From the IMG/VR virus record IMGVR_UViG_3300046559_000483, positions 1 through 42,545 of that record: 42,545 bases of DNA. One strand, given 5' to 3'. The first letter of the stretch is position 1. Every line of letters begins with the position of its first letter. The position numbers and the translations under genes were made by a program. The DNA comes from a virus. A model generated the notes under the pieces. The model saw only the letters and a program-made list of their open reading frames with translations. It did not search any database and was not told the DNA's origin. This document shows positions 28,359 through 41,914 of the stretch, one piece after another.

Positions 28359-29585
28359 ATGGAGGCTCTCCTTTTCGACGGGGGTGCGCGCTTGCTGCTC
28401 AAGGGTGGCCTGGTCGGCGGCGTTGAATTCGCGCTGTCGTTGAAGCCCGTAGAGGGAGAAGGGGCTCACGAACGGGCCGATACCATCGCGGACATTGCCG
28501 AGGTATCCGGCACTGGCTACACGCGCCAGGCCTCGGAAGCCCCCCTGTCGTTCGGTGACGTATTCACATTTCCCCAGGTTGAATGGAATACCGGCAGCGC
28601 GACAAACTGGGAAGACGCTGGGTCTGTGGTGCTGGTCAAGGGAATCACGGCGATCGCCGCGTTCGGGATCAAGCGCGGCTCGGAATACCCTGAACGGCAC
28701 CTGCCGGCGCACTCGGTGTATCGCTACACGGCGCGGCTACGGCTGGGGCCGGAAGTGCCGCCGCCCGAAGAAGGCAAAGAAGGGGAACCACAGCTGACAT
28801 GGATTCCCTACGGGCCTGGCGCGGACAACTCGGAAGACGAAGTGGTAACGGTAGTCTACCCGGCATCGAAACCGGGGCGTCCGGTGGTAGTGATGGTGCA
28901 TGGTGGGAGCTGGTCGTCGGGCAATGCGAAACCGGGCGAAGCGCCGGCCAACGATTCGGCCAACAAAATGCTCCAGAGCACCTACAACTTCTGCGTCATC
29001 GACATCAACTACCCGCTCATCAAAGGGCCGACGGGCACGAATCCGGGGGCGCCGAAGCAAACCGCCGCGTTGCCGCGTGCGTTTCAGTGGGTCGTCGATC
29101 ATTGCGCGGACTACAACGGCGACCCGGCGAAGGTCTGCGCGGTCGGCACGTCGGCGGGTGGCCACGTTGCGATGTGGGGTGCGATCACCGCGAACAAAGC
29201 GCATTCCGGACGAGTGAAGGGTGTGGGCACGCTGAGCGGGCCGGTGGCGCTCGTGACGCTTGAACAGATCGTGCTCGGCGAACTACCGGGCGGGCCATCG
29301 TTGTCGGCGGCGGGCGAGGTTGGGCACGCCTACCCGGCGCGGACTTTCAGCGAAGCCTACGACCCGGCGTCGCACGTCGAGTCCACGTGCCCGAACATGC
29401 TCTGCTTTCACTCGCACGAGAAACTGGTGCCCTTCGCCTTGGCTGAAACGCTGCGGGCGGCGATGGTCGCAGCGGGGTATGGGTCGCGTATAACCATCGT
29501 GCAGAAGGAAGGGACTGGGCACGGCGCGGCGCTAATGGGCGCCTGCAAGGTCGAACTCGCGGCGTTTGTCGAAGCGGTGACGTGA
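28359..29585 (+). CDS. Tail protein with alpha/beta-hydrolase (carbohydrate esterase-like) domain
   Basis: A 408-residue fusion. Residues 1-~135 are the tail beta domain shared with the two smaller upstream proteins (SGTGYTRQASEAPLSFGDV, GITAIAAFGIKRGSEYPE). Residues ~145-408 are an alpha/beta-hydrolase: oxyanion motif HGGSW (181-185), nucleophile elbow GTSAGGH (Ser265), HSHEKLVPF where E354 may be the acid in place of Asp, and catalytic His388 in GTGHG. The closest pattern is the BD-FAE or acetylxylan-type esterase group. A tail-mounted esterase would remove acyl groups from surface polysaccharide during adsorption. Confidence 0.75.
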   Translation: MEALLFDGGARLLLKGGLVGGVEFALSLKPVEGEGAHERADTIADIAEVSGTGYTRQASEAPLSFGDVFTFPQVEWNTGSATNWEDAGSVVLVKGITAIAAFGIKRGSEYPERHLPAHSVYRYTARLRLGPEVPPPEEGKEGEPQLTWIPYGPGADNSEDEVVTVVYPASKPGRPVVVMVHGGSWSSGNAKPGEAPANDSANKMLQSTYNFCVIDINYPLIKGPTGTNPGAPKQTAALPRAFQWVVDHCADYNGDPAKVCAVGTSAGGHVAMWGAITANKAHSGRVKGVGTLSGPVALVTLEQIVLGELPGGPSLSAAGEVGHAYPARTFSEAYDPASHVESTCPNMLCFHSHEKLVPFALAETLRAAMVAAGYGSRITIVQKEGTGHGAALMGACKVELAAFVEAVT

Positions 29586-35067: not shown

Positions 35068-35967
35068 ATGACGCTAGCCATACCGTGGGCGCTGGATGGC
35101 CCCTCAACAGACGCACAGGTGGCCCGCCTAGCCATGGGCTCGCTAATCAGCGCAGCGGGTGGCGTAGTCACGGCGGGAGCCATGGAAGTGAAACAGAAGG
35201 GCACGCCGGACATGCACGTGCTCATCGCGGGTGGCACGGTGGCAGAAGGCGGTGCGTGGGTGCCGGGCACGGTCACGACCACCCAAGGCCCGTTCTTCGC
35301 CTACAACAACGCGAACGTTGAACTAGCCATCGTGGCCGCGGGCGCCACCAACCCGCGAGTGGACACGATCATCGTCCGCGTCTACGACGACGCCACCGAC
35401 AGCACGGGCAAATCGGAATCGAAATTCGAATCCCTCAAAGGTGCCGAAGAACCGGGCTGTACGCTGGAAAACCTGAAAGGCGTGGCGGCCGTGCCCAAAT
35501 CCAGCCTCGTGCTGGGCTACGTGTTGGTCGAAGCAAAAGTGACGAGCATCGTCACGGCCAAGATTCTGAACGTGGCGCGGCCCAGCGGAACAGGCGCTGG
35601 AGCATGGACTGCCATGGAATCCTTTGGGGCCAAATCAGAAGCTCTTAGTGGTGGTGTGACGCCCGGCGCGCGTATAGAGGGAGCGCGAATATTTCTAAGA
35701 GGAGTTATCGCCCCCCAAGTTGGGCAAACCCTCAAAAAGAACGATGTTCTTTGCACCTTGCCAACGGGCCTACGGCCCCTAGAGGGCACTCAACAGCCCG
35801 CGGTATGTCGCGAAGGCGGGGGCGAAGGCGCCTCCTACTTGGCCCCAAGTGCAATTGTCATAGAAACTAACGGTAAAATCAGCTACGCAGGCAACCTAAC
35901 CATCACACGTTCAGTCCTACCCGTGGGAACCATCTCGCTGGATGCCATGAGCTTCAGGCTGTCGTAG
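35068..35967 (+). CDS. Receptor-binding/upper baseplate-type tail protein
   Basis: A 299-residue protein with TGGAGAC before ATG 35068. The N-terminal ~180 residues are the beta-rich scaffold common in actinophage minor tail proteins (MHVLIAGGTVAEGGAWVPG, DTIIVRVYDDATDS). The C-terminal ~110 residues form a knob (ARIFLRGVIAPQVGQTL, LPTGLRPLEGTQQP, AIVIETNGKISYAGNL). From about 35600 the DNA is visibly less GC-rich and codon use changes, suggesting a swapped tip domain that determines host range. Confidence 0.6.
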   Translation: MTLAIPWALDGPSTDAQVARLAMGSLISAAGGVVTAGAMEVKQKGTPDMHVLIAGGTVAEGGAWVPGTVTTTQGPFFAYNNANVELAIVAAGATNPRVDTIIVRVYDDATDSTGKSESKFESLKGAEEPGCTLENLKGVAAVPKSSLVLGYVLVEAKVTSIVTAKILNVARPSGTGAGAWTAMESFGAKSEALSGGVTPGARIEGARIFLRGVIAPQVGQTLKKNDVLCTLPTGLRPLEGTQQPAVCREGGGEGASYLAPSAIVIETNGKISYAGNLTITRSVLPVGTISLDAMSFRLS

Positions 35968-37043: not shown

Positions 37044-37913
37044 ATGAGAAGGATGCGCGCAGCCCTCGTAGTGCTGTTGGGCGCCGCCCTCTTGGCTGGC
37101 TGTGGGGGCGGCAAGGCGACGCCGCAGCCCAAGCCAGCCTGCCCGCCTGGGCAGGTTGCGATCCCCAGCCACGGCTGCCTGCCCGTCCAGGTGCCCGGTC
37201 CCGGTGGCTCTGGCGTCAGGCCCGAAGGTGCGCCAGCGGTGCCACGCGGCGCGGTGCCACGCACGGTAGCCGGGCTGGCTGTCTCGACGCGCGGGGTGCT
37301 GTTCGTCGCCGGCTTCGAGGGCTTCTCGAGCTGCCCGTATTGGGATCCCTACGGGCGTGTCTCCACCCGCGGCTACGGCGAAACCGACTTCGGCGACACG
37401 TTCGGCGGCCGGTGCATCAGCAGGTCCTTCGGGCTGGCCAATCTACGCAACCTGCTCAACCGCAACTACCTCTACCCCATCCGGCAGATAGGCGGCAGCT
37501 ACAACCAGTGCATGGTCGACGCCATGGGCTCCGCGTCCTACAACCTAGGGCCAGGTATCATCTTCTCGCTCGCCGGCAGCTTCCGGGCGCACAACGCCTA
37601 CCCGCTGCTGGGGTATGTCCATGCCGGTGGGGTCACGCTGCCGGGCCTAGTGCGGCGCAGGCACGCCGAGGTGGCGCTGTTCTACAGCCACGGCTGCACA
37701 CCGCCGGCACCCGAGAGCAGGGCGCACAAGCGGCTGCGGTTATACGCGGCCTACAGGCGCCGCTCGACGCTGCGGTATGCGCTGGCCCACTACGGCTGCC
37801 GGCAGCGCGTCAAGCACCGCCAGCGGGTAGGCCCTACCTGCCGTCGGTGGTTCGCCGAAGGACGGGCACGCAACCACGAAATCGCGCAACTGCACCGAGA
37901 AGGGATCACGTGA
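37044..37913 (+). CDS. GH24 lysozyme (endolysin) with lipoprotein-type signal
   Basis: A 289-residue protein from ATG 37044. The N-terminus is a lipoprotein signal: MRRMR, a hydrophobic core and lipobox LLAGC (Cys20), then a Pro/Gly-rich linker to ~80. The lysozyme part has FEGF (Glu92), PYWDPYG (Asp101) and VSTRGYGETD (Thr108), the E-D-T triad of GH24 muramidases with one extra residue before Thr. Then come SYNQCMVDAMGSASYNLGPG and a basic C-terminus. It should cut the glycan strands of peptidoglycan after export and membrane anchoring. The stop overlaps the next GTG. Confidence 0.8.
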   Translation: MRRMRAALVVLLGAALLAGCGGGKATPQPKPACPPGQVAIPSHGCLPVQVPGPGGSGVRPEGAPAVPRGAVPRTVAGLAVSTRGVLFVAGFEGFSSCPYWDPYGRVSTRGYGETDFGDTFGGRCISRSFGLANLRNLLNRNYLYPIRQIGGSYNQCMVDAMGSASYNLGPGIIFSLAGSFRAHNAYPLLGYVHAGGVTLPGLVRRRHAEVALFYSHGCTPPAPESRAHKRLRLYAAYRRRSTLRYALAHYGCRQRVKHRQRVGPTCRRWFAEGRARNHEIAQLHREGIT

Positions 37914-38410
37914 GCGCAACCGCACTACAGCACGCTGAATGGGCGCACAATGCGGCCGACCACCTCGCAGGGCAGCTCGAGCCCTACGTCTTGGGTGGAG
38001 GCCACGGTGTGGCCGCTGTCGCGGGCTACCTGCCGCCGACACGTGGCATCGAACCGGCACGCAACCCCGTGGCCGGCTTTGACTGCTCGGGGTGGGTCAG
38101 TTCGATCCTGTGGCACGCTGGTCTGCTCGGGCACGCCGAGGCAATCGCCACGCAGGGCTTCGAGGCCTGGGGGCTGCCCGGCATAGGCGAGCATGTAACC
38201 GTTTGGGTCCACGACGACCCGACCCCCAACGAAGGACTGCACCACTGCTTCGCGCACCTCTACGTGGCCGGACGCCCGCACGTCTGGACGGCCGCTACGC
38301 ACACCGGCACGATCTGCGGGTGGCAAGACCAGTGGGGCGATTGGATCACGGCGGGATACACGCCGCGGCGCCCCGACCCGGCAAGGTTCACAGGGAGGCA
38401 GTTCGCATGA
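37910..38410 (+). CDS. NlpC/P60-like cysteine peptidase
   Basis: A 166-residue protein from GTG 37910 (GTGA overlap). The motif NPVAGFDCSGWVSSILWHAGLL (Cys59) is the catalytic start of NlpC/P60 or CHAP-type peptidases; H116 in CFAHLYVAG is the likely base. No signal peptide. It probably cleaves peptidoglycan cross-links alongside the GH24 enzyme, either as a lysis partner or as a virion-bound enzyme. Confidence 0.65.
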   Translation: MSATALQHAEWAHNAADHLAGQLEPYVLGGGHGVAAVAGYLPPTRGIEPARNPVAGFDCSGWVSSILWHAGLLGHAEAIATQGFEAWGLPGIGEHVTVWVHDDPTPNEGLHHCFAHLYVAGRPHVWTAATHTGTICGWQDQWGDWITAGYTPRRPDPARFTGRQFA

Positions 38411-39720
38411 GCACCGTAGACCTCAGCACCGAACAGTGGGCGCGCGTGATTGCCGCTGTGACCGGCGGGCCGGACCTAAGCCCGACCGTCGCCACCGATG
38501 CGGCAATCCTTGCAGTCCTGCAGTCGACACAGCCGCCACCTCCACCGCCACCACCCCCGCCGGCCTCCCAGCTGACGTTCGGGCTGGACGGCAAAGGCGG
38601 CGCCGTAGTCTCCTCGGCACCTGCCGGCACCGTGACCATCGAGCCTGCGTGGAGCAGGACGACGAAACCCGAAGCGGGCGACACGATCTACTCGCAGGCG
38701 GCCGAATGGGTGCCGCCAACGGCAACGATCCTGCCGAAGCCCGGCTACCCAGTCATTGGCGGCCGGGCGCGCGACGCGGCCGGCAAAGTGATCGGCTCGC
38801 CGACGTGGGCGCCACGGCTGCTAGTCGGCGAACCGGCGCCCCCGCCGCCGCCACCTCCGCCGCCACCTCCGCCGCCACCCTCTTCGCTGGTAGTGGCTGC
38901 GGACACCTACCAGCTAGCGCCGACATCCGAAAAGAACGGGATCAAGGCCGGCCCCGATATCGCCGCCTGCGTGACGGCTGTGCGGATGTGCGGCACCTCG
39001 CGGGGCTCGACGGCGGGGCTACCCAACTCAGCCCTGACGGCCTGGCAGAAACAGGGCTGCGGTGTCATCATCACCGACTTCAACGGCGGCATGACGGTCG
39101 CGAGCATCCCGGTGGGCACCTGGACGGGGCGGTTTGTGGAACGTCAGCTGGCGGGCCCGCTCGCGATCGAGGAGGGCAACGAGCTGTACGAACCGCCGTG
39201 GGGTCCGAATCAGACAGCACAGGCCGCGATCGACGCCTACTTCGCCCGTCTGGAAGCGACGCGTGTGGCGATGGACAAAGCCTACGGCCGTGGCAACTAT
39301 GCACCGCTGCTGGCCTGCTGCCAGGGCAGCGAGAAAATGGGCTGGACGAACGCGCTCGCCGCGAAAGGGCTCAAAGACGTGGTTGACGGCGCGGTCGTCC
39401 ACTGCTACCCCAAAGAATCCCAGACCGAAACGACCGGCGCCAGCCTGAGCTTCGAGCGGGCAGGGGAAGTCCACAACGCGACGGGCCTGCCGATCTGGAT
39501 CACGGAGTTCTGTCCGCCCAGCCCCGGCAAGTTCACGCTCGCCAACCAAGCCAGCGATACAGCGGCGTTCGTCGAAAAATGCCGCGCCACGAGCTGGATC
39601 CACGGCTGCTCCTACTTCGCCTACGAGGAACGCAAAGAGGGCACCTACGGCTTCGGGCTGGTCGACGAAAGCTGGAAACACAAGCCGGTCTACGCGGCCC
39701 TACAGGCTGCGGCGAAATAG
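38407..39720 (+). CDS. Glycoside hydrolase-like protein with polyproline linkers
   Basis: A 437-residue protein from ATG 38407. A short helical start leads to a ten-Pro run (~44-53), a small beta domain (~55-140), a second run of 14 Pro (~144-157), then a TIM-barrel-type domain. Clan GH-A acid residues are visible as EEGNELYEPP (Glu259) and IWITEFCPP (Glu367), with GCGVIITDFNGG and VVDGAVVHCYPKE as barrel strands. Related in plan to the frameshifted hydrolase at 30729-33051. It probably degrades surface or wall polysaccharide. Confidence 0.65.
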   Translation: MSTVDLSTEQWARVIAAVTGGPDLSPTVATDAAILAVLQSTQPPPPPPPPPPASQLTFGLDGKGGAVVSSAPAGTVTIEPAWSRTTKPEAGDTIYSQAAEWVPPTATILPKPGYPVIGGRARDAAGKVIGSPTWAPRLLVGEPAPPPPPPPPPPPPPPSSLVVAADTYQLAPTSEKNGIKAGPDIAACVTAVRMCGTSRGSTAGLPNSALTAWQKQGCGVIITDFNGGMTVASIPVGTWTGRFVERQLAGPLAIEEGNELYEPPWGPNQTAQAAIDAYFARLEATRVAMDKAYGRGNYAPLLACCQGSEKMGWTNALAAKGLKDVVDGAVVHCYPKESQTETTGASLSFERAGEVHNATGLPIWITEFCPPSPGKFTLANQASDTAAFVEKCRATSWIHGCSYFAYEERKEGTYGFGLVDESWKHKPVYAALQAAAK

Positions 39721-39729
39721 GAGGAACCA

Positions 39730-39951
39730 ATGCAGACATCGGTACAAATCGGGATCACAACCGTCATCGGCTGGCTGACAGCCGGGCTGGCGGCAATCCC
39801 TGTGGTCATCACGATCCTTGAAGAAGGCAACGCGGCGGTCGCGATCAATGGGCCGACGAAATGGGCGGCGATCCTGTCAGTCGTGTCGTTCGCGATCACG
39901 CAGATAGGCCGCTACTTCCAGGCGCACGCGCAGATCAAGTCCAGCAAGTGA
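39730..39951 (+). CDS. Holin candidate
   Basis: A 73-residue protein with GGAGGAACCA before ATG 39730. Two membrane segments (IGWLTAGLAAIPVVITIL and AAILSVVSFAITQIG) flank a short charged loop, and the C-terminus is polar and basic (YFQAHAQIKSSK), the standard layout of small phage holins. It would permeabilise the membrane at lysis time. It is flanked by hydrolase genes, which supports the call. Confidence 0.65.
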   Translation: MQTSVQIGITTVIGWLTAGLAAIPVVITILEEGNAAVAINGPTKWAAILSVVSFAITQIGRYFQAHAQIKSSK

Positions 39952-40820
39952 GCCGCTCCTACGGGCGCACGCCCAAGACACCCGACCCCCGCGACTTCCT
40001 GCTCGGGGACCACCTAGCGGGCATCGACCCCGTGCAGGCCGTTGCGGGCGCAACCTTCGGCCACGGCAACACCTACGCCAACTGGCGCATGAACGGCAAC
40101 GGGCCGGTGCAGCCGGGCGAAGCGCTACCGGCCAAGTGGAAGGCCGCCAAGGAAGGCGCAGGCGACTGCGTGTATGCCGCCTGGGTCAACGAGGTGAAGG
40201 AGGCACTGACGGACGCCGGCATGGACCCAGCTGCGGCCGAGGCCAAGGTAGGCAACGCCGAGACGGCGATCCGCGCCTACATGAGCACCGGCTACAACCC
40301 CTCGACGGGCGCCCACGACGACGGAGCTGAAGTGCGCGACCGCCTGAAGCGTGCGCAGAAGACCGGGCTGACCCTGGCCGACAAAACCGTGCACAAGATC
40401 GGCATGTATGTGGCGGTCGACTACACAAACCTCGACCACCTGCTGTTCGCACTCAAGTATTTCGAGGGGCTGCCCATCGGCTGCGCGGTCCTGAACGCCA
40501 ACGAGGAAGCCTTCGGGGAGGCGGAAGGCAAGCTCGACCCGGAAGGCCACCCGCTGGCGGCCGTGTGGGACGACGAACCGAACGGCGAGGTCGTGGCCCT
40601 GCATTGCATCCCGCTCGTGGGCCGGCCGGACAGCACGCACATCGCCGCGCTCACGTGGGGGCGGCGCGTGTTCCTGACGCCGGCCTACATGGCCAAGCGT
40701 GTCGAAGAGGTCTGGGCGTACCTGAGCGCAGACCGCATCAGCGCCGTGACGGGCAAGAGCTACGAGGGTGCTAGCGAAGCGGTGCTGGCCGAATACATCC
40801 AGAAGGTAGTGGCGATGTGA
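39948..40820 (+). CDS. Papain-like cysteine peptidase-type protein
   Basis: A 290-residue protein from GTG 39948 (GTGA overlap). GAGDCVYAAWVNEVKEA (Cys74) opening a long helix and a later VVALHCIPLVGR (His219) followed by THIAALTWGRRVFLTPAYM match the C1/C39-like fold of a conserved actinophage protein in lysis or tail regions. Its substrate is unknown; a peptidoglycan or host-surface protein target is an inference. Confidence 0.5.
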   Translation: MSRSYGRTPKTPDPRDFLLGDHLAGIDPVQAVAGATFGHGNTYANWRMNGNGPVQPGEALPAKWKAAKEGAGDCVYAAWVNEVKEALTDAGMDPAAAEAKVGNAETAIRAYMSTGYNPSTGAHDDGAEVRDRLKRAQKTGLTLADKTVHKIGMYVAVDYTNLDHLLFALKYFEGLPIGCAVLNANEEAFGEAEGKLDPEGHPLAAVWDDEPNGEVVALHCIPLVGRPDSTHIAALTWGRRVFLTPAYMAKRVEEVWAYLSADRISAVTGKSYEGASEAVLAEYIQKVVAM

Positions 40821-41914
40821 AGGCCTACGGATGCGGCTTCGACGGGCACTACGAGCTAGGGCAGGGCTGGCCGCGCAAAGCCATGGAAGGCCAGGCGAAG
40901 CTCAAATGGACGCTAATCCCGAACCTCGGCTCCGATAACGCCTGGTGCCACACGCTGTCGTTCTCATCGCTGTTCCTGAAGCAAGGAGCCGTGACGCTGA
41001 CCGACGCCCGCCCTAACACCGTCTATGCGCTCGGGACAACGCTGGCCGGACATCTGCTGCTGGGCTGGAAAGACCAGTCGGCGGTATGGTTCCCGTCCAG
41101 AACGCTGCTCCCGCCATGCGCGCAGATCGCCGGCACCTGCAACCATCCCGTGCATCTGACACTCGACGGGCGGATCGTCACCGGCGGCCCGAACGCCGAA
41201 GGGACGTTAGCCAACGGCGAAAGAGGCACCCGTGAAGAACCGAAAGCAGTTTCCGTGCCGGTGTTCCCCGACCTGTCCGCCTTCGCCGGCAAACGGGTAA
41301 TCGCAGTCGACGGGGGCTACGGCCACTGCGGCTGCCTTTTCGATGACGGGACCACCGCCGGCTGGGGGGAGAACGCCTCATCCCAGGTCGGGGACGGCAC
41401 GCTGACCGACCGGCTGGTGGTCACGCAGACGATCGCCACGGAAGTCGTCGCCTTTGCGTGCCTGTGGAACGCAAAGCTCTACCTGAAAGCTGACGGGCGG
41501 GTTTCGATGGTCGGCAACAACAATCAGAACCAGTCTGCCGGCGCCGCCCCTGCAATCGCCCATTCGATCAAGCAGCCGTTACTGATCCCTGGCCTTGAAG
41601 GGATCATCGCTGTCGCCGGGGCAGGCGGACGTGCTCTAGCCGTCGACGTGAACGGCGACCTGTTCATGTGGGGTGCCGACGAACCCGGTCCGCCGCGGAA
41701 GGTGCTCGATCAGGTGTCTGCGATCAGCGCCGGCTGCTACCAGTGGGCCACAACATGCCTCGCCGTCCGCGACGGGGAAGTCTGGGCACAAGGCCGCGCG
41801 AACTATGGGCAGATTGGAGATGGCACGCGCGACGATAAAGAGGCGTTCGTGCCTACAGGCTTCGGGGCGTCTGTCATCAGCGCCGGGGAAACGCATAGCC
41901 TGGCGCTGGCCTAG
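40817..41914 (+). CDS. RCC1-type beta-propeller protein
   Basis: A 365-residue protein from GTG 40817 (GTGA overlap). Repeats of the RCC1/BLIP-II kind are visible: NTVYALGTT, LDGRIVTGGPNAEGTLANGE, VIAVDGGYGHCGCLFDDGTTAGWGENASSQVGDGT (in parts), KADGRVSMVGNNNQNQSA, VNGDLFMWGADEPG and DGEVWAQGRANYGQIGDGT, ending ISAGETHSLALA. About seven blades fit the length. RCC1 propellers bind proteins or ligands; the partner here is unknown. Coupling to the peptidase gene suggests a joint role. Confidence 0.7.
   Translation: MKAYGCGFDGHYELGQGWPRKAMEGQAKLKWTLIPNLGSDNAWCHTLSFSSLFLKQGAVTLTDARPNTVYALGTTLAGHLLLGWKDQSAVWFPSRTLLPPCAQIAGTCNHPVHLTLDGRIVTGGPNAEGTLANGERGTREEPKAVSVPVFPDLSAFAGKRVIAVDGGYGHCGCLFDDGTTAGWGENASSQVGDGTLTDRLVVTQTIATEVVAFACLWNAKLYLKADGRVSMVGNNNQNQSAGAAPAIAHSIKQPLLIPGLEGIIAVAGAGGRALAVDVNGDLFMWGADEPGPPRKVLDQVSAISAGCYQWATTCLAVRDGEVWAQGRANYGQIGDGTRDDKEAFVPTGFGASVISAGETHSLALA

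What the first reader, a model, noticed from the sequence alone, without database searches (positions are those of the whole stretch)
40817..41914. Phage-encoded RCC1/BLIP-II-like beta-propeller in the lysis module
RCC1-type propellers are common in eukaryotes and in some actinobacterial secreted inhibitors such as BLIP-II, but I know of no standard phage role. It is translationally coupled to a papain-like peptidase and followed by a secreted 3D protein. It could be a receptor-binding propeller, or an inhibitor of a host wall enzyme or defence protein. No signal peptide is seen, so it acts in the cytoplasm or on the virion.
Basis: partly seen in the sequence, partly recalled or inferred. Interest (0 to 1): 0.6.

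Follow-up and report, generated by a model that had tools for sequence, protein, structure and literature searches.

The report
Phage RCC1 propeller, likely virion adhesin
A probable actinobacteriophage carries an accessory gene for a seven-bladed RCC1-type propeller protein, a fold already found in virion and tail-fibre proteins of many unrelated phages; it most likely helps the particle bind cell surfaces and is not a fixed partner of the neighbouring peptidase.

Summary
ORF 40817-41914 (GTG start, 365 aa, 38 kDa, no signal peptide) is an RCC1-type propeller: Pfam WD40_RLD E=3e-45, AlphaFold2 pTM 0.76, VIA-align Z 39.6 to the HERC1 RCC1-like domain, 34.1 to human RCC1, 24.8 to BLIP-II. It overlaps a papain-fold peptidase gene by GTGA, which overlaps a holin-like gene the same way.

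(1) The peptidase-propeller pair is not conserved: the peptidase family occurs in seven other phage records, none with an RCC1 match, including a relative with a 51%-identical peptidase in the same lysis-gene order. (2) RCC1 in phages is not unprecedented: tail fibres (PollyC), fibre-module genes in many viral contigs, and virion proteins of the same size detected by mass spectrometry (W70_237-239, GAP32_001).

Best reading: an accessory, virion-associated binding propeller encoded beside the lysis genes (confidence 0.5). The function is inferred from relatives about 25% identical; nothing here shows the ligand. BLIP-II-like inhibition of a host enzyme, or a role in lysis, is not excluded. New member of a known kind; modest interest.

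The parts
40817..41914 (+). RCC1-type seven-bladed beta-propeller, 365 aa, no signal peptide
40817..40867 (+). N-terminal strand(s) that close blade 1 with the C-terminus
   Evidence: read from sequence and from RCC1-like fold alignment over residues 1-365; this part of the model has low pLDDT
41873..41911 (+). C-terminal VISAGETHSLALA, first strands of the closing blade
   Evidence: Pfam RCC1 best repeat 319-364
39948..40820 (+). papain-fold cysteine peptidase (phrog_19005), Cys76/His221 (numbering of P0002, which starts at 39942) invariant in 7 phages; GTGA overlap with the propeller gene
39730..39951 (+). holin-like small membrane protein (73 aa), GTGA overlap with the peptidase gene
   Evidence: sequence; no family match above chance
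38407..39720 (+). glycosyl-hydrolase catalytic-core-like protein with poly-proline linkers
   Evidence: PF11790 E=1e-7
37044..37913 (+). phage lysozyme with a lipobox-like N-terminus (LLAGC)
   Evidence: PF00959 E=1.6e-10, phrog_7 endolysin; relatives L140-L142

Best explanation
It is an accessory phage gene for a stand-alone RCC1-type propeller that is probably made late, with the lysis genes, and rides on the virion as a minor surface protein whose propeller face binds a host-surface or environmental ligand (sugar or protein), that is, an adhesin or receptor-binding module. Shown: the fold, the gene overlap, its absence from the records of relatives that keep the peptidase, and that RCC1 propellers in other phages sit in tail fibres or in virions. 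Inferred: that this particular protein is in the virion, and that it binds a surface ligand. The overlap with the peptidase gene is read as shared late expression, not as an obligate two-protein machine.
For: Stand-alone RCC1 proteins of 40-43 kDa are in the virion of E. coli phage W70 (three tandem genes, phrog_4219, genes seen) and GAP32_001 is in the GAP32 virion. The present protein matches phrog_4219 (E=8e-11) and is 38 kDa. W70's genes lie among small hypothetical genes, so virion RCC1 proteins need not sit in the tail module. RCC1 domain on a fibre scaffold: PollyC gp12 has a weak T7 tail-fibre N-domain match (E=7e-5, 23.1 bits, just under the cut-off) plus RCC1 repeats and sits directly after the internal virion protein; Littlefix gp88 is annotated tail protein; the LIBA6276 RCC1 gene lies between tail-fibre genes; Marinobacter PS6 has a stand-alone 298-aa one two genes after a 4.5-kb gene. 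In IMG/VR, genes within three of an RCC1 gene match mostly tail-fibre or fibre-assembly families, while genes seven or more away in the same loci match terminase and head families. 45 of 110 complete viral RCC1 ORFs are 330-450 aa like this one. No signal peptide, so external action needs the virion or lysis. Accessory distribution suits a host-range gene.
Against: No close relative was found, so function is carried over from proteins about 25% identical. The gene lies downstream of the lysis genes and lacks any tail-attachment domain. Tandem stand-alone RCC1 genes in other viral contigs neighbour unknown or enzyme families, not always tail genes. The role of the W70 and GAP32 proteins within the virion is itself unknown.
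Confidence: 0.5

Rival explanations
1. BLIP-II-like inhibitor: the propeller binds and blocks a host enzyme (cell-wall transpeptidase, protease or a defence protein) in the cytoplasm or after lysis.
For: BLIP-II is an RCC1-related seven-bladed propeller and aligns with the model (Z 24.8, 249 residues). No signal peptide is compatible with a cytoplasmic target. Accessory presence suits an anti-defence gene.
Against: Closer in fold and blade length to HERC/UVR8/RCC1-like domains (Z 34-40) than to BLIP-II. BLIP-II is secreted; this has no signal peptide. PADLOC gives no match, though that library lists defence, not counter-defence. No target gene identified.
Confidence: 0.2
2. Lysis accessory: the propeller works with the overlapping papain-fold peptidase, lysozyme and holin, for example by targeting or regulating the peptidase.
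For: GTGA overlaps chain the holin-like, peptidase and propeller genes; late lysis neighbours.
Against: The peptidase family is found in seven further phage records without any RCC1 match, including a 51%-identical one in the same gene order. No relative found fuses the two.
Confidence: 0.17
3. Neutral or newly captured cargo (moron) from a bacterium, with no role settled in the phage yet.
For: Absent from the records of relatives; GC and GC3 slightly below its neighbours (0.648/0.781 against 0.675/0.874 for the peptidase gene); bacterial RCC1 proteins on plasmids match at similar identity, 25-39% over the matched parts.
Against: Intact, in frame, tightly overlapped with the late operon; composition close to that of the phage; RCC1 genes are recurrent in phages.
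Confidence: 0.13

Closest known systems
phrog_4219 virion RCC1 proteins (E. coli phage W70_237-239) and the RCC1 proteins of Rak2-like jumbo phages (GAP32_001)
   Same: Stand-alone RCC1 propeller of about 40 kDa encoded by a phage, no enzymatic domain, gene away from the tail module (W70).
   Different: Those in W70 form a tandem array, and those in 121Q and PBECO4 are in multiple copies; all infect enterobacteria, and the W70 and GAP32 proteins were seen in virions. Here there is one copy in a probable actinobacteriophage, about 24% identity to GAP32_001 over the aligned part, virion location untested.
RCC1-bearing tail fibres (Pseudomonas phages PollyC gp12, Littlefix gp88; Clostridioides phage LIBA6276_00039)
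   Same: Same RCC1-type propeller in a phage late protein.
   Different: Those are about 870-1630 aa with other parts; here the propeller stands alone.
Eukaryotic RCC1-like domains (HERC1/HERC2, UVR8, RPGR, RCC1)
   Same: Best structural matches, seven blades, Z 34-40 over about 300 or more residues.
   Different: About 22% identity; no exchange-factor, chromatin or photoreceptor context.
BLIP-II of Streptomyces
   Same: RCC1-superfamily seven-bladed propeller from actinobacteria.
   Different: Shorter (about 270 aa), secreted, lower fold score (Z 24.8).
phrog_19005 papain-fold phage peptidases (neighbour)
   Same: Upstream gene belongs here; Cys/His conserved.
   Different: Elsewhere it occurs without a propeller.

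Membership tests
RCC1-type beta-propeller (Pfam PF00415/PF25390) | Family HMM match above the curated cut-off | tested here: met
   PF25390 155.4 bits (cut-off 150), PF00415 42 bits (cut-off 21.7)
RCC1-type beta-propeller (Pfam PF00415/PF25390) | Seven-bladed propeller fold | tested here: met
   AlphaFold2 pTM 0.76, Z 39.6 HERC1 RLD3, 34.1 human RCC1; residues 6-64 low confidence
RCC1 proper (Ran exchange factor) | Ran/chromatin partner and nucleotide-exchange activity | not testable with these tools
   phage of a bacterium; no Ran; not assigned
BLIP-II | Secreted RCC1-like propeller (signal peptide) | tested here: not met
   N-terminus VKAYGCGFDG starts in the propeller, no hydrophobic leader
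BLIP-II | Tight binding of class A beta-lactamase | not testable with these tools
   needs an assay
Phage virion RCC1 proteins (phrog_4219 kind) | Sequence match to the family | tested here: met
   E=8.3e-11, partial stretch of the profile
Phage virion RCC1 proteins (phrog_4219 kind) | Protein present in purified virions | not testable with these tools
   uncultured phage
Conserved peptidase-propeller two-gene system | Both genes adjacent in several phages | tested here: not met
   peptidase in 8 of 11 records, RCC1 only in the window phage's own contig
Papain-like (C1 fold) peptidase, upstream gene | Catalytic Cys and His in a papain fold | tested here: met
   C76 and H221 invariant in 7 sequences; xylellain Z 12.5, 211 residues, from a low-confidence model (pLDDT 60)
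3D-domain protein, downstream gene | Pfam or NCBIfam 3D domain match | tested here: not met
   no family at E up to 1 in Pfam or NCBIfam

The most novel reading that the evidence does not exclude
A cytoplasmic RCC1/BLIP-II-like propeller, made late by an actinobacteriophage, that inhibits a host wall enzyme or a defence protein; no phage-encoded RCC1 inhibitor turned up in the papers searched here.
Probability: 0.15. Interest if true: 0.6.

Novelty: new member of a known kind. Interest (0 to 1): 0.3.

Why it matters
RCC1 propellers are scattered through phage virions and tail fibres but are usually annotated as 'regulator of chromosome condensation', a name that has led to suggestions of a role in packaging DNA. 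This case adds a probable actinobacteriophage with a minimal, stand-alone version and a relative that lacks it, which makes the gain/loss comparison clean. It is a reason to test these proteins as adhesins instead of DNA condensers.

Tried and rejected
Close relatives of the propeller: none in phage records, only the identical contig in IMG/VR, none in genome contigs. Host assignment by prophage relatives of the peptidase failed; the major head protein points to actinobacteriophages. Relatives of the glycosyl-hydrolase protein: only self. The search with the downstream protein used a wrong frame (42014 in place of 42012), so it says nothing about that gene. The genome search gives no kin for virus records. 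No tRNA or Rfam family in the window; no promoter-like site and terminator-like sites at chance level near the gene. PADLOC: nothing. DNA condensation as a function was considered and rejected: the protein is acidic (pI 5.75), and the name comes from eukaryotic RCC1 only. Papers matched by 'RCC1' together with prophage or receptor-binding, as far as read, were algal strain names or Rhodobacter gene tags.

Full report
WHAT IS THERE. The ORF at 40817-41914 on the + strand codes for 365 aa from a GTG start. It matches Pfam WD40_RLD (E=3.2e-45) and RCC1 (E=1.4e-10), both above the curated cut-offs, and three PHROG families named regulator of chromosome condensation (E about 1e-9 to 1e-10). A profile of viral RCC1 proteins built without it gives 113.9 bits; the best of 200 residue shuffles gives 2.5 bits. 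The AlphaFold2 model has mean pLDDT 74 and pTM 0.76, with residues 6-64 poorly resolved. VIA-align puts it at Z 39.6 with HERC1 RLD3, 39.4 with HERC2, about 37 with UVR8, 34.1 with human RCC1 and 24.8 with BLIP-II; Foldseek agrees. Seven blades can be read in the sequence and the ring is closed by N- and C-terminal strands. So the propeller is real, and it is nearer to RCC1-like domains than to BLIP-II.

SURROUNDINGS. The gene follows, in order, minor tail genes, a lysozyme with a lipobox-like leader (37044-37913), a protein I read as NlpC/P60-like (about 37925-38410; no family match), a glycosyl-hydrolase-core-like protein with poly-proline linkers (38407-39720), a holin-like small membrane protein (39730-39951) and a papain-fold peptidase (39948-40820). 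The holin-like, peptidase and propeller genes are chained by two GTGA overlaps. The major head protein is nearest to phages of Actinomycetia, Gordonia, Arthrobacter and Microbacterium, so the host is probably an actinobacterium. The window record is a 42,545-base virus record; its last 9,729 bases are identical to a stretch of a longer IMG/VR contig (53,651 bases), which continues to the right.

THE PEPTIDASE. It belongs to phrog_19005 (E=8.5e-18). Six distant relatives share an invariant Cys and His with it. Its model is of modest quality (pLDDT 60, pTM 0.65), but the top matches are almost all papain-family enzymes, led by xylellain at Z 12.5 over 211 residues. In MW202816 it lies next to an amidase gene. 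That it acts in lysis is inferred from neighbours.

IS THE PAIR CONSERVED? No. Whole-record searches of 11 records found the peptidase family in 8 and the RCC1 repeat only in the window phage's own contig. The telling case is IMGVR_UViG_3300014501_000003 (71,489 bases): it has relatives of the minor tail protein at 35068, the lysozyme, the next small protein and the peptidase (51% identity) in the same order, but no RCC1 anywhere; its peptidase is followed by a small ORF and a secreted transglycosylase-like ORF. These records may be fragments, so absence from the record is not proof of absence from the phage; but in that relative the place next to the peptidase is covered. The propeller gene is therefore accessory, gained here or lost there.

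WHAT RCC1 PROPELLERS DO IN OTHER PHAGES. The motif is common in viral contigs (at least 120 stretches at one strict pattern). 45 of 110 complete viral RCC1 ORFs are 330-450 aa, that is, of stand-alone size, and 41 of 118 loci hold two or more RCC1 genes. Genes within three places of RCC1 genes match mostly tail-fibre and fibre-assembly families; genes seven or more places away in the same loci match terminase and head families. Among isolates, PollyC gp12 joins a T7 tail-fibre-like N-terminus (weak match, just under the cut-off) to RCC1 repeats, Littlefix gp88 is annotated tail protein, and LIBA6276 has its RCC1 gene between fibre genes. Virion mass spectrometry found three stand-alone RCC1 proteins of 40-43 kDa in E. 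coli phage W70 (PMC11370258) and GAP32_001 in GAP32 (PMC5259590). The W70 paper relays a suspicion that such proteins help encapsulate DNA; nothing seen here supports that, and the present protein is acidic (pI 5.75).

READING. The most likely role is a virion-associated binding propeller, an adhesin, made with the late genes (0.5). This rests on relatives about 25% identical. An inhibitor of a host enzyme (0.2), a lysis accessory (0.17) and unsettled cargo (0.13) remain open.

Noticed in passing
37044-37913; L141:7001-7843; L142:7001-7930: The lysozyme has a lipobox-like leader (LLAGC), and two relatives at 37-39% identity keep an N-terminal leader ending in GC; a lipoprotein endolysin would be unusual.
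   Followed up: partly
38407-39720: Glycosyl-hydrolase-core-like protein with two long poly-proline linkers; the relative L142:8189-9763 has a collagen-like repeat in the same gene position.
   Followed up: no
L058:7355-9911, L113:3045-5600, L122:4697-7228, L106:4377-6903 and others: Tandem stand-alone RCC1 genes recur in IMG/VR contigs: 17 adjacent pairs of genes of about 320-475 aa; some lie beside a phrog_27463 gene of unknown function.
   Followed up: partly
L001:15402-15908 (right of the window, on the longer contig): A small protein of the longer contig is 63% identical to one in the relative G001 (L159) although most genes around it differ; not identified further.
   Followed up: no
L003:11842-12573 (MW202816.1): Papain-fold peptidase of another phage lies directly after an amidase gene; the only annotated phage record with a relative found by tblastn.
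   Followed up: yes
28359-29582: Esterase-like protein (phrog_3341, E=4e-10) encoded after the tape-measure gene; possible surface-glycan esterase.
   Followed up: no
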